The position numbers and the translations under genes were made by a program. A stretch of 24,386 nt of DNA from the NCBI GenBank assembly GCA_029556545.1, contig JAKQEQ010000147.1:1-24386 (forward strand). The letters run 5' to 3'. This DNA comes from Candidatus Hydrogenedentota bacterium. Its GTDB lineage: Bacteria; Hydrogenedentota; Hydrogenedentia; Hydrogenedentales; JAGMZX01. The notes below the pieces were generated by a model that saw nothing but the letters and a program-made list of their open reading frames with translations, did not search any database and was not told the DNA's origin. How positions within the stretch are numbered: the stretch's first letter is position 1; each line of letters starts with the position of its first letter. Shown here piece after piece: positions 12,021 through 16,225 of the stretch.

Positions 12021-13028
12021 CTATTTCCGCGTGGTGCGGCATGCCTGCGCACTGAGCGCTTCCGGGTTCACGCAATTGGGCGGAATCTCCCCGCGAAGTC
12101 GCGCGATGATGTTTGCGGCGGCAATCTCGGCCATGCGGGCGCGGGTTTCGGCGGTGGCGCTGCCGAGGTGGGGGATCAGCACCGCATTTTCGCACCCGGC
12201 CAAGTCGGGGTGTACCGCCGGTTCCCGCTCGAAGACGTCCAGACCGGCGGCGAATATCTCGCCGTGCCGCAAGGCGTCCGCCAGCGCCGCCTCGTCGACG
12301 ACTGGGCCGCGGGCGGTGTTGACGAGAACGGCGGTGGCTTTCATGGCGTGGAACTCGGGCGCGGCGAAGGCGTGGCGCGTCTCCGGCGTCAGAGGACAAT
12401 GAATCGAAATGAAGTCCGACTCGCGCAGTAGCGTCGTCTTATCGACAAACGTCGCGCCGAGTGCGGCCTCCGCGTCGGGCGGCAACGGCGCGGTGTCGTG
12501 ATAGAGGACCCGCATGCCGAACGCGCCCGCCCGCCGCGCCACCGCCTGCCCGATGCGGCCCATGCCGAAGACGCCCAAGGTCTTGCGGTATACGTCCACG
12601 CCGAGCAGGAGCATGGGCGCCCAGCTTTTCCAGCGCCCCGCGCGCAGATAGCGTTCCCCTTCGCCGATGCGCCGCGCGGCGGCCATCATCAGTGCCCACG
12701 CGAGGTCGGCGGTGGTTTCCGTCAATACGTCCGGCGTATTCGTGACCGCGATGCCGCGGGCGGTGGCGGCGGGCACGTCCAAATTGTCGAAACCGACCGC
12801 GTAGTTGGCGATGATCTTGAGTTGCGGCCCGGCTGCGTCCATCACTTCCGCGTCCATGCGGTCCGTGAGTATCGGGAGCAGCGCCTCGACCCCGCGTACA
12901 GCGGCAAGCAAGTCCTCGCGTGGGATAACCCGGTCCTCCGGGTAGACCGCCACCTCGCGTTCTCCGAAGGCGTCGGTTAACACCGCCAGAGCGCTCTCCG
13001 GTAATCGACGGCATACAAAGACTCGCAT
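12021..13028 (-). CDS. D-2-hydroxyacid dehydrogenase (glyoxylate/hydroxypyruvate reductase-like)
   Basis: A 335-residue NAD(P)-dependent oxidoreductase that interconverts a 2-keto acid and a D-2-hydroxy acid in the cytoplasm. The nucleotide-binding loop [13 protein letters not shown] is clear, and the substrate-side motif [11 protein letters not shown] precedes it. The catalytic triad is complete: Arg in [10 protein letters not shown], Glu in [11 protein letters not shown] and His in IPHLGSAT. This pattern is closest to glyoxylate or hydroxypyruvate reductases. ATG 13028 has GGAAGGA ~10-15 nt upstream; an ATG at 13046 overlaps that site and is less likely. The gene stands alone. Its substrate cannot be fixed among the close relatives. 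Confidence 0.9.
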
Positions 13029-13561
13029 GATAGACAATCCTTCCATTCCTAACCCAGGATCAGCGGTATCCCACGCGTTGTCCCGCTGTTCGCAATCGTA
13101 CCCGCGATCGCTTCCGAATTCATAATCCCATGTCTCACATTCGCGGTCTTTTCAGGAACTGGCGCCCGGGACCGATGGCATCTGACGTGGCGGGCGGTAC
13201 CAACGACGATGCCTACAATTCCGTGGGATTGCCTCCGGCGCCCTACAACGCAGTAGGGGATTGGATGCCTCGTCTTGACCATGGTATATTGTGCGGAAGG
13301 CAGCGAGCGTTTGGGATCGTCTATATCGCCCCTCGTCGAGGATGTGCGCTTTAACCTACGCATTTGCAATAACTTACCGCTGTCTTCTCTCCCGGAAAGT
13401 TGTTCCTTTTGTGCCGGCTAGCTTCCTCTATTGCTTCCGGGGCTATGACTTGGCATGACTGTTGCTCCTTCCCCGCGCATGGACTTGGTCGGCGCTGTCC
13501 ACAGGCGGGCGGTGACGGGCGGGTCGTGGCAATGGCAAGGCAATCCAAAGGGAGGAACGCC
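13029..13561. other. Long intergenic region containing two tandem stem-loops
   Basis: There is no gene I can support in these ~530 nt. Two successive stem-loops lie at 13212-13227 (CCTAC/GTGGG, one G-U type pair) and 13241-13258 (CCCTAC/GTAGGG, perfect). The sequences around them are similar (CTACAA at the start, GGATTG after each), so they look like an imperfect tandem repeat of about 33 nt. The region is upstream of both the dehydrogenase gene (-) and the first small-peptide gene (+). TATATT at 13285-13290 could be a -10 box, but its -35 is poor. Confidence 0.4.
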
Positions 13562-13669
13562 ATGTTCAGTTTCGTGGAGTTAGTTGTCAGTTTCATTACG
13601 TTCGTGGTCGAGTACTTTGCGGCCCTGTTGCTCAGCATCCTTTTCCCCGAGGAGGAGGAAGAGGCGTAA
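13562..13669 (+). CDS. Small hydrophobic peptide 1 (35 residues)
   Basis: The ATG follows a strong ribosome binding site (GGGAGGA, 6 nt spacing). The product has 35 residues. Residues ~2-28 are almost all Val, Leu, Ile, Phe and Ala, interrupted by Glu6 and Glu17, then comes a Pro and a run of five Glu and Ala. It would be one membrane helix or an amphipathic helix with an acidic end. I know no family for it. It aligns without gaps to the next peptide: MFxF at 1-4, an acidic residue at 6 and ALLLS at 21-25. A hairpin follows the stop. The longer upstream frame from 13400 is not supported by a ribosome binding site. Confidence 0.65.
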   Translation: MFSFVELVVSFITFVVEYFAALLLSILFPEEEEEA

Positions 13670-13674
13670 CAGCG

Positions 13675-13700
13675 GCAGGGCGCGCCGGGCGCAACCCTGC
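13675..13700 (+). terminator. Hairpin between peptide genes 1 and 2
   Basis: GCAGGG (13675-13680) pairs with CCCTGC (13695-13700). The bases between can extend the stem with GCGC/GCGC around a CGG loop. A short GTTTG follows but no real T-run, so it may be a weak terminator, an attenuator or an RNA-stabilising end. It starts 6 nt after the stop of peptide gene 1. Confidence 0.4.
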
Positions 13701-13756
13701 GAAGTTTGCGTTCGTGTCAGGTGATGCAAAGCGAAACAAGGAGGTAAATGCGGATC

Positions 13757-13873
13757 ATGTTTGACTTCTCGGATTTCATTGCACAGTTGGCGGGATGGTT
13801 TCTCGGTGAAATCGTGGCCTTGCTGCTGAGTTTCGTCGAAGTACTTATCGCCGGACCGGCGTCGCTGGTATAG
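13757..13873 (+). CDS. Small hydrophobic peptide 2 (38 residues)
   Basis: A 38-residue product from ATG 13757; ATG 13748 in the same frame would add MRI. AGGAGGT lies upstream, only 3 nt before the first ATG and 12 nt before the second. The second start is preferred because the product then lines up residue for residue with peptide 1 (MFxF, acidic at 6, ALLLS at 21-25). The sequence is hydrophobic with Asp and Glu spaced along the helix and ends in a neutral GPASLV. No known family is recognised. An inverted repeat, GGACC/GGTCC (13876-13880 and 13894-13898), begins just after the stop. Confidence 0.6.
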   Translation: MFDFSDFIAQLAGWFLGEIVALLLSFVEVLIAGPASLV

Positions 13874-13983
13874 TCGGACCGGTTCCCCGTTCGGGTCCCG
13901 GGCGCGCGACTGCGTTGCTCGGGCCCGTGTGCTTGCGGCGTCCGAACGCGCGAGGCTCGGGTTCGGGGCTTCGCGCCCGCGCG

Positions 13984-14012
13984 TTGACTGCGTGTCGGAG
14001 AACGGATACACT
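13984..14012 (+). promoter_or_regulatory. Sigma70-type promoter for peptide gene 3
   Basis: TTGACT (13984-13989), a 17-nt spacer and TACACT (14007-14012) match the housekeeping promoter well. Transcription should begin near 14019, leaving a ~50-nt leader before the ATG at 14068. The presence of this promoter inside the cassette supports the peptide genes being real and suggests gene 3 can be expressed on its own. Confidence 0.6.
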
Positions 14013-14067
14013 CTGCAACCGTTAAGGCCGGTCGGCGGCCGCAAGCAAGTAGTAAGAGGGAACCGTC

Positions 14068-14184
14068 ATGCTCATCAATGTTCCGGGTCTGGTGGAAGAC
14101 TTTCTCGTGTGGTTTGTCACCAAGGTGGCTGGGGTGCTCATCGAGCTTATCCATTCCTGGTTCGAGACCGCGAGCCCGTGGTGA
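14068..14184 (+). CDS. Small hydrophobic peptide 3 (38 residues)
   Basis: A 38-residue product with ATG 14068 preceded by AGAGGG (7 nt) and by its own promoter at 13984-14012. The sequence has the same character as peptides 1 and 2: one hydrophobic helix with acidic residues near positions 10-11 and 26, Ala at 21, and extra Trp residues (15, 31 and 38). Identity to the other two is low, so common descent is likely but not shown. It has one Lys in mid-helix and ends FETASPW. A perfect 14-nt palindrome follows the stop. Confidence 0.6.
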   Translation: MLINVPGLVEDFLVWFVTKVAGVLIELIHSWFETASPW

Positions 14185-14220: not shown

Positions 14221-14772
14221 TCATGTGCGGTCGCGCGAGCGAAAGCAGGCGTGAAGCGCCTGAAAACAGTTTGCCGCGTCCGCGTGATCGGCGAACGCGC
14301 GCTTCGGGATAATGAACGCGCGCAGGTGTCCCGTCACCAGGAAGATATGATCGGGGGTCTCGGCGACGTCTTGGACGCCGTCCCAGTTCATGACGCCGCG
14401 CCCGTGAGGGTTCTCGATGGTGATCCGGTCCGGCGCGATGGTCATGATGGTGTGCCCGAGCATTTCGTGCAGGGCGCTCGAACGGCAAATCCAGCCTACG
14501 ACGGCCGGTCGAACGTATTGCAGATATGTCGCGTACACCGCGGCGAGCAGCAACAAGAGCAGGGACAATCGCGCGGCGAATTGGAGTGGGGCCTCGATAC
14601 CGCTCACCGAGCCGCCGAACTCCGAGTATACAAACACACCCAACAACAGCAGGCCGAGGATCACCATGCGGCGCATCCCGCGTTTCCCCTCGGCCGTGTG
14701 TTTGTAGAAGTATTGCCCGAACGCGACAAAGTCGTCCTGCGTCACCTCGAATTCGAGTCGCACTGGTTCCAT
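14221..14772 (-). CDS. YcxB-like membrane protein
   Basis: A 183-residue protein. The N-terminus has the pattern FEVTQDDFVAFGQYFYKHT, seen in YcxB-type proteins. Two membrane helices follow at ~36-50 and ~66-85. After them comes a YcxB C-terminal-like domain (GHTIMTIAPDRITIENPHGRGVMNWDGVQDVAETPDHIFL), a small beta-rich region reminiscent of PH-like membrane-associated domains. The function of the family is unknown. The ATG at 14772 is separated by a single base from the gnd stop, so it is translationally coupled to gnd. Confidence 0.75.
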   Translation of the reverse strand: MEPVRLEFEVTQDDFVAFGQYFYKHTAEGKRGMRRMVILGLLLLGVFVYSEFGGSVSGIEAPLQFAARLSLLLLLLAAVYATYLQYVRPAVVGWICRSSALHEMLGHTIMTIAPDRITIENPHGRGVMNWDGVQDVAETPDHIFLVTGHLRAFIIPKRAFADHADAANCFQALHACFRSRDRT

Positions 14773-14773
14773 C

Positions 14774-16225
<1,452 letters not shown>

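What the first reader, a model, noticed from the sequence alone, without database searches (positions are those of the whole stretch)
13562..14184. Cassette of three tiny genes for hydrophobic, acid-dotted peptides
Three ORFs of 35, 38 and 38 codons lie in a row on one strand, each with a ribosome binding site (AGGAGG-like or AGAGGG), each followed by a hairpin or inverted repeat, and the third with its own promoter. The products are single hydrophobic helices with acidic residues at spaced positions. I know no family for them. Possibilities are membrane-active peptides, small subunits of a membrane complex, regulators of a membrane enzyme, or type I toxin-like peptides.
Basis: partly seen in the sequence, partly recalled or inferred. 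Interest (0 to 1): 0.75.

Follow-up and report, generated by a model that had tools for sequence, protein, structure and literature searches.

The report
σ54-driven trio of tiny membrane peptides
Three real but previously unrecognised genes for 35- to 38-residue membrane-type peptides sit together in an uncultured Hydrogenedentota bacterium, two of them behind a conserved σ54 "on-demand" promoter, which makes them likely stress or nutrient-response membrane helpers, although their exact job is unknown.

Summary
The three tiny ORFs are real genes. All three are kept in a second species of the genus with the same lengths, 63-68% amino-acid identity, no frameshift and substitutions concentrated in third codon positions. 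None occurs by chance in 100 shuffles of the window. They are not one transcription unit. Pep3 has its own conserved σ70-type promoter, and in the second species it lies on another contig. In related families the order 6PGD-ycxB-reductase is uninterrupted, so the cassette was inserted between ycxB and reductase before the two species split. The peptides look like distant paralogues of one another. They match nothing in Pfam, NCBIfam, PHROGs, PADLOC, PDB, Rfam, 66 other genomes of the phylum, or GTDB (one degenerate pattern). Pep1 and pep2 are predicted to be single helices, with no Lys or Arg and a conserved mid-helix Glu. Best reading: σ54-inducible inner-membrane microproteins (Psp/PspG-like in logic, not homologous) that modulate the membrane or a membrane protein. 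Toxin-like pore formation is the main rival. Function is inferred, not shown.

The parts
13450..13466 (+). σ54 (-24/-12) promoter TTGGCATG-ACTG-TTGCT of the pep1-pep2 operon
   Evidence: Only match of TGGCAYG-N4-TTGCW in the window, 0.00 expected in 100 shuffles; conserved as TTGGCATG-ACGT-TTGCT 70 nt before pep1 in the second species; RpoN is encoded in both genomes
13549..13555 (+). ribosome binding site of pep1 (AGGGAGG)
   Evidence: Read from the sequence; the block AAGGGAG[AG]AACGCC-ATG is conserved in the second species
13562..13669 (+). pep1, 35 aa: MFSFVELVVSFITFVVEYFAALLLSILFPEEEEEA
   Evidence: Orthologue of equal length in G001, 22/35 identical residues, 17 of 31 substitutions at codon position 3, NG86 dN 0.23 / dS 1.63; AlphaFold2 single helix 2-27, mean pLDDT 89
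13738..13744 (+). ribosome binding site of pep2 (AAGGAGG)
   Evidence: Read from the sequence; AGGAGGT conserved at the same distance (12 nt) in the second species
13757..13873 (+). pep2, 38 aa: MFDFSDFIAQLAGWFLGEIVALLLSFVEVLIAGPASLV; the ATG at 13748 is unlikely because the extension is not open in the second species
   Evidence: Orthologue of equal length in G001, 26/38 identical, 21 of 36 substitutions at codon position 3, NG86 dN 0.22 / dS 2.18, permutation p 0.0002; AlphaFold2 helix 4-32, mean pLDDT 90.5
13892..13928 (+). GC-rich hairpin, possible transcription end of the pep1-pep2 operon; no T run
   Evidence: Energy z -1.67 here and -1.31 at the same place in the second species; modest evidence
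13984..14012 (+). σ70-type promoter of pep3, TTGACT-17-TACACT
   Evidence: conserved as TTGACA-17-TAGACT upstream of pep3 in the second species
14054..14060 (+). ribosome binding site of pep3 (AAGAGGG)
   Evidence: Read from the sequence
14068..14184 (+). pep3, 38 aa: MLINVPGLVEDFLVWFVTKVAGVLIELIHSWFETASPW
   Evidence: Orthologue of equal length in G001:C113, 24/38 identical, no gaps, permutation p 0.028
12021..13046 (-). flanking 2-hydroxyacid (glyoxylate-type) dehydrogenase; divergent neighbour of pep1 in both species
   Evidence: Pfam 2-Hacid_dh_C 1.2e-60; synteny
14221..14772 (-). flanking YcxB-like protein; convergent neighbour of pep3 in both species
   Evidence: Pfam YcxB 2e-13; synteny

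Best explanation
Pep1 and pep2 are a two-gene operon of inner-membrane microproteins that is silent until σ54-RNA polymerase is activated by an enhancer-binding protein, i.e. under a particular stress or nutrient signal. The two are made from one mRNA and inserted as acidic single helices. They probably associate with each other through the narrow polar strip that carries the conserved mid-helix Glu (E17 in pep1, E18 in pep2), and they adjust the bilayer or a membrane protein, in the way small σ54-dependent Psp proteins do. Pep3 is a distant paralogue expressed separately from a σ70 promoter; in the aligned register its conserved K19 stands where pep2 has E18, so it could be a constitutive partner. 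Shown: the genes are real and conserved, and there are two transcription units by promoter sequence. Strongly inferred: σ54 control and membrane helices. Inferred only: partner choice and biochemical role.
For: Frames, lengths and residues conserved in a second species. σ54 site is the only one in the window and is conserved in position while the sequence around it has diverged. RpoN present; the same consensus precedes rpoN, P-II and a response-regulator/histidine-kinase protein in this genus and, elsewhere in the phylum, pspABC, P-II, ammonium transporters, GvpA, pilins, ClpB. Single helices by AlphaFold2; hydropathy peak 1.6-2.2 in the window's three peptides; polar residues on one side of the helix. 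Pep1-pep2 and pep2-pep3 similarity p 0.00055 each by column shuffle. A second σ54-driven tiny membrane-type ORF, 30 aa followed by a terminator-like hairpin and T run, is in another family (L217).
Against: No expression, localisation or phenotype data. No enhancer site or activator identified. PspA was not found in the window's own genome, so a direct Psp link is weak. Pep3 has a different promoter and is unlinked in the second species, so its tie to pep1-pep2 rests on weak similarity and adjacency. Only two species carry the family, so conservation statistics are shallow; helical-moment p values are 0.01-0.07. G001's pep3 has a hydropathy peak of only 1.25.
Confidence: 0.45

Rival explanations
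1. Toxin-like membrane-depolarising peptides (TisB-like): amphipathic helices whose induction permeabilises the cell's own membrane and slows growth.
For: Length, hydrophobicity and amphipathic pattern are in the TisB range; tight on-demand promoter; several tandem copies.
Against: No antisense promoter found and no Rfam RNA match; no Pfam match; pep1 and pep2 carry no Lys/Arg at all, whereas TisB relies on alternating Asp/Lys (PMC8309996). That paper also notes exceptions without C-terminal positive charge (IbsC, ShoB, DinQ), so charge alone does not exclude it.
Confidence: 0.17
2. Dedicated small subunits of a particular membrane enzyme or transporter encoded elsewhere (KdpF/CydX/MgtS-like).
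For: Conserved buried Glu and aromatic positions suggest a specific protein partner; σ54 regulons of the phylum include ammonium transporters.
Against: No transporter or respiratory enzyme beside the genes in either species; three peptides in one small family is unusual for a single-complex subunit.
Confidence: 0.22
3. Leaderless secreted amphipathic peptides (phenol-soluble-modulin or leaderless-bacteriocin type).
For: Short leaderless amphipathic helices in tandem, anionic overall.
Against: No dedicated exporter or immunity gene nearby; no Pfam match; aggregate hydrophobicity is that of membrane-spanning helices.
Confidence: 0.07
4. Spurious ORFs or translated leaders without function; the conserved element is the promoter for something else.
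For: Very short, found in only two genomes.
Against: Codon-position bias, equal length, no frameshifts in three independent genes; no other gene follows on that strand before convergent ycxB.
Confidence: 0.04

Closest known systems
Psp membrane-stress proteins PspB, PspC, PspG (σ54/PspF regulon)
   Same: Small membrane proteins from σ54 promoters; PspG is an integral inner-membrane effector (PMC2763126); pspABC with a σ54 promoter occurs in this phylum
   Different: No sequence similarity; PspG is predicted to have two membrane helices, these one; no PspA found in the window's genome
Type I toxin peptides such as TisB, IbsC, ShoB
   Same: About 20-35 residues, hydrophobic helix with a polar strip, sometimes in tandem (PMC8309996; tandem arrangement from general knowledge)
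   Different: No antisense RNA found, no basic residues in pep1/pep2, no Pfam match
Single-helix accessory membrane microproteins (KdpF, CydX, MgtS, YohP; from general knowledge)
   Same: Size, single predicted helix, unlinked to obvious enzymatic function
   Different: No partner gene adjacent; three related copies; strongly acidic
Uncharacterised intergenic microproteins under purifying selection (Enterobacteriaceae survey, PMC11188072)
   Same: Hydrophobic, potentially transmembrane, no Pfam domain, under purifying selection
   Different: Here with identified promoters of two sigma classes, paralogy, and a dated insertion site

Membership tests
σ54-dependent operon (pep1-pep2) | -24/-12 element with GG and GC spaced correctly | tested here: met
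   TTGGCATGACTGTTGCT at 13450-13466, conserved in G001
σ54-dependent operon (pep1-pep2) | RpoN encoded in the genome | tested here: met
   PF04552 E 8.2e-64 in G000, 2.9e-64 in G001
σ54-dependent operon (pep1-pep2) | Upstream enhancer site and activator | tested here: inconclusive
   No conserved dyad found in 330 nt upstream
Phage shock protein system | PspA/IM30 homologue in the genome | tested here: not met
   None in G000, one in G001; G000 is 96% complete, so a gap is possible
Phage shock protein system | Sequence similarity to PspB/C/D/G | tested here: not met
   No Pfam or NCBIfam match at E <= 1
Type I toxin-antitoxin | Antisense or adjacent RNA antitoxin | tested here: inconclusive
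   No σ70-like promoter on the opposite strand, no Rfam match; needs RNA-seq
Type I toxin-antitoxin | Match to known toxin families in Pfam | tested here: not met
Type I toxin-antitoxin | Growth arrest on expression | not testable with these tools
   Needs experiment
Bacterial single-helix membrane microprotein | Under 50 residues with one predicted hydrophobic helix | tested here: met
   Pep1 and pep2 by AlphaFold2 and hydropathy; pep3 by hydropathy only
Bacterial single-helix membrane microprotein | Translated and membrane-located in vivo | not testable with these tools
   Needs Ribo-seq and fractionation
Phage or defence protein | Match in PHROGs or PADLOC | tested here: not met
   PHROGs best E 0.05 for pep2 only, PADLOC none; no viral-contig relatives of pep2 or pep3

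The most novel reading that the evidence does not exclude
The three peptides are one new paralogous family that forms a mixed-charge membrane assembly: an inducible acidic pair (E17/E18 in mid-helix) and a separately controlled partner with Lys at the aligned position (K19), switched by σ54. Convergent trios of tiny hydrophobic peptides at the same 6PGD-reductase locus in another Hydrogenedentota family would then be a recurrent, undescribed kind of membrane-peptide cassette in this phylum.
Probability: 0.12. Interest if true: 0.75.

Novelty: new member of a known kind. Interest (0 to 1): 0.42.

Why it matters
Genes this short are rarely annotated, and none of the family libraries searched here has a model for these three. 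Here comparative evidence gives three real ones plus the promoter class that turns two of them on, in a phylum known, in the records found here, mainly from metagenome-assembled genomes. If the σ54 link holds, the regulon of this phylum (nitrogen control, Psp, chaperones, pili, gas vesicles) includes uncharacterised membrane peptides, and the condition that induces them can be guessed and tested from the activator. The mid-helix Glu/Lys pattern gives a direct mutational test of whether such peptides act as an assembled unit.

Tried and rejected
One operon of three genes: rejected, since pep3 has its own conserved promoter and sits elsewhere in G001. An 89-aa protein starting at TTG 13400 that contains pep1: rejected, since conservation starts at the pep1 Met and the σ54 site lies inside the longer frame. 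Homologues elsewhere: none convincing in 66 other genomes of the phylum (all other hits E > 0.02, mostly inside long ORFs), none in GTDB by one degenerate pattern, viral contigs, plasmids for pep2 or phages for pep3, or PDB for pep1 and pep2 profiles. A structure-carrying RNA: no Rfam match, hairpins mostly at shuffle level. A shared enhancer dyad upstream of the σ54 site in the two species: not found. PspA neighbourhood as functional key: G000 has no PspA hit. Homology of pep1-3 with the hydrophobic trio of genus g14: not supported (12 comparisons, best p 0.005 for pep3-x3b, not significant after correction).

Full report
WHAT IS THERE. The window is one 24.4-kb contig of a 6.1-Mb genome. Its best relatives by the neighbouring dehydrogenase are records titled Candidatus Hydrogenedentota. 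Three ORFs lie in a row on the + strand: pep1 13562-13669 (MFSFVELVVSFITFVVEYFAALLLSILFPEEEEEA), pep2 13757-13873 (MFDFSDFIAQLAGWFLGEIVALLLSFVEVLIAGPASLV) and pep3 14068-14184 (MLINVPGLVEDFLVWFVTKVAGVLIELIHSWFETASPW). Hydrophobic SD-preceded ORFs of this kind never arise in 100 dinucleotide shuffles of the window.

ARE THEY GENES. The one other genome of the genus that is held (G001) encodes all three with the same lengths and no gaps. Identity is 63, 68 and 63%. Substitutions by codon position are 7/7/17, 10/5/21 and 11/6/13. When the same substitutions are placed at random, amino-acid identity as high as observed is reached in 1.3, 0.02 and 2.8% of trials, and 34-46% of random outcomes contain a stop codon. 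NG86 dN/dS is about 0.14, 0.10 and 0.35; with so few sites these are rough.

PROMOTERS. Upstream of pep1 lies TTGGCATG-ACTG-TTGCT (13450-13466), a σ54 -24/-12 element. It is the only match in the window, 0.00 expected. G001 has TTGGCATG-ACGT-TTGCT 70 nt before its pep1, although the sequence around it has otherwise diverged. Both genomes encode RpoN. In this genus the same consensus precedes rpoN itself, a P-II protein and a response-regulator/histidine-kinase protein. Of 113 perfect sites inspected across the phylum, many stand before pspA, P-II, ammonium transporter, gas-vesicle, pilin and Clp genes, so the element is a working promoter class here. Pep3 instead has TTGACT-17-TACACT, matched by TTGACA-17-TAGACT in G001.

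TWO UNITS, ONE ORIGIN. In G001 pep1-pep2 stay beside the dehydrogenase, while pep3 is on another contig beside ycxB and 6PGD. In five genomes of family f11 the order is 6PGD-ycxB-dehydrogenase, all co-directional, with no peptide genes found by the scan. The window keeps that order but has about 1.2 kb with the three peptides on the opposite strand between ycxB and dehydrogenase. The simplest history (inference) is insertion of the trio in the genus ancestor, then a rearrangement in the G001 lineage. Column-shuffle tests give p 0.00055 for pep1-pep2 and for pep2-pep3, and 0.04 for pep1-pep3, so a common origin is likely but not proven.

WHAT THE PRODUCTS LOOK LIKE. AlphaFold2 gives one helix for pep1 (2-27) and one for pep2 (4-32), mean pLDDT 89 and 90.5; pep3 was not modelled. 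Net charges are -7, -4 and -3, with no Lys/Arg in pep1 or pep2 of either species. Polar residues cluster on one side, with moderate support (helical-moment p 0.01-0.07). E17 (pep1), E18 (pep2) and K19 (pep3) are conserved in mid-helix; pep2 E18 and pep3 K19 fall in the same aligned column.

KNOWN FAMILIES. No match in Pfam, NCBIfam or PADLOC at E <= 1; PHROGs gives one weak hit (E 0.05) to a family of unknown function. No PDB match to profiles of pep1 or pep2, and no convincing homologue outside the genus. These searches are weak for 35-residue peptides, so 'genus-specific' means 'not detectable further out'.

HOW IT MOST LIKELY WORKS. σ54 control means on-demand expression. A small acidic membrane helix pair made on demand fits a membrane or transporter modulator, as the Psp effectors do in E. 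coli (PMC2763126). No PspA was found in this genome, so I claim analogy, not membership. A TisB-like depolarising role is possible but lacks an antitoxin RNA candidate and the alternating charges (PMC8309996). Confidence in the modulator reading is 0.45; in the genes being real, above 0.95; in σ54 control of pep1-pep2, about 0.9 (my estimates).

SIMILAR THINGS NEARBY. Genome G021 (family f9) has three other tiny hydrophobic ORFs in tandem between a CorA-like gene and the same dehydrogenase, one of them conserved in G015. G058 has a 30-aa membrane-type ORF directly behind a σ54 site and followed by a terminator-like hairpin and T run. Neither is demonstrably homologous to pep1-3.

Noticed in passing
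L227 and L085 (G021), 3' of a CorA-like gene, convergent with the dehydrogenase; L083 (G015): Three tandem tiny hydrophobic ORFs (MEIWVQIFAVLAAVIFNLVIWFAE, MTVMEIVIRVVLSIISVVAASMAFWL, MSVSAIIQLVIAVLNIVAMIVSFFVPSA) at the same 6PGD-dehydrogenase locus in another family; the third is conserved in a sister species.
   Followed up: partly
L217 (G058:C100), about 79 nt downstream of the σ54 site: σ54 site, then a 30-aa ORF MERGIAKERIISLLAGGAVIAAVWLIMAGL with AAGAGGAGG, then a strong terminator-like hairpin with a T run.
   Followed up: partly
L211 (G046:C353:10260-13750): Three tandem paralogous ORFs of about 90 aa, signal-peptide-like and Gln/Gly-rich, each 95 nt behind its own identical σ54 site.
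   Followed up: no
L047 (G000:C63) and L051 (G001:C65): A σ54 site lies 34 nt before the rpoN start codon in both species, suggesting autoregulation.
   Followed up: partly
L118, L122, L151, L184 and other phylum loci: σ54 sites before pspABC, P-II, ammonium transporter, GvpA, pilin, Hsp20-like, ClpB and GroES-like genes: an outline of the σ54 regulon of Hydrogenedentota.
   Followed up: partly
window 14221-16225 against G001:C113: 6PGD-ycxB is followed by purD-pep3 in G001, marking a rearrangement breakpoint between pep2 and pep3 relative to the window.
   Followed up: yes
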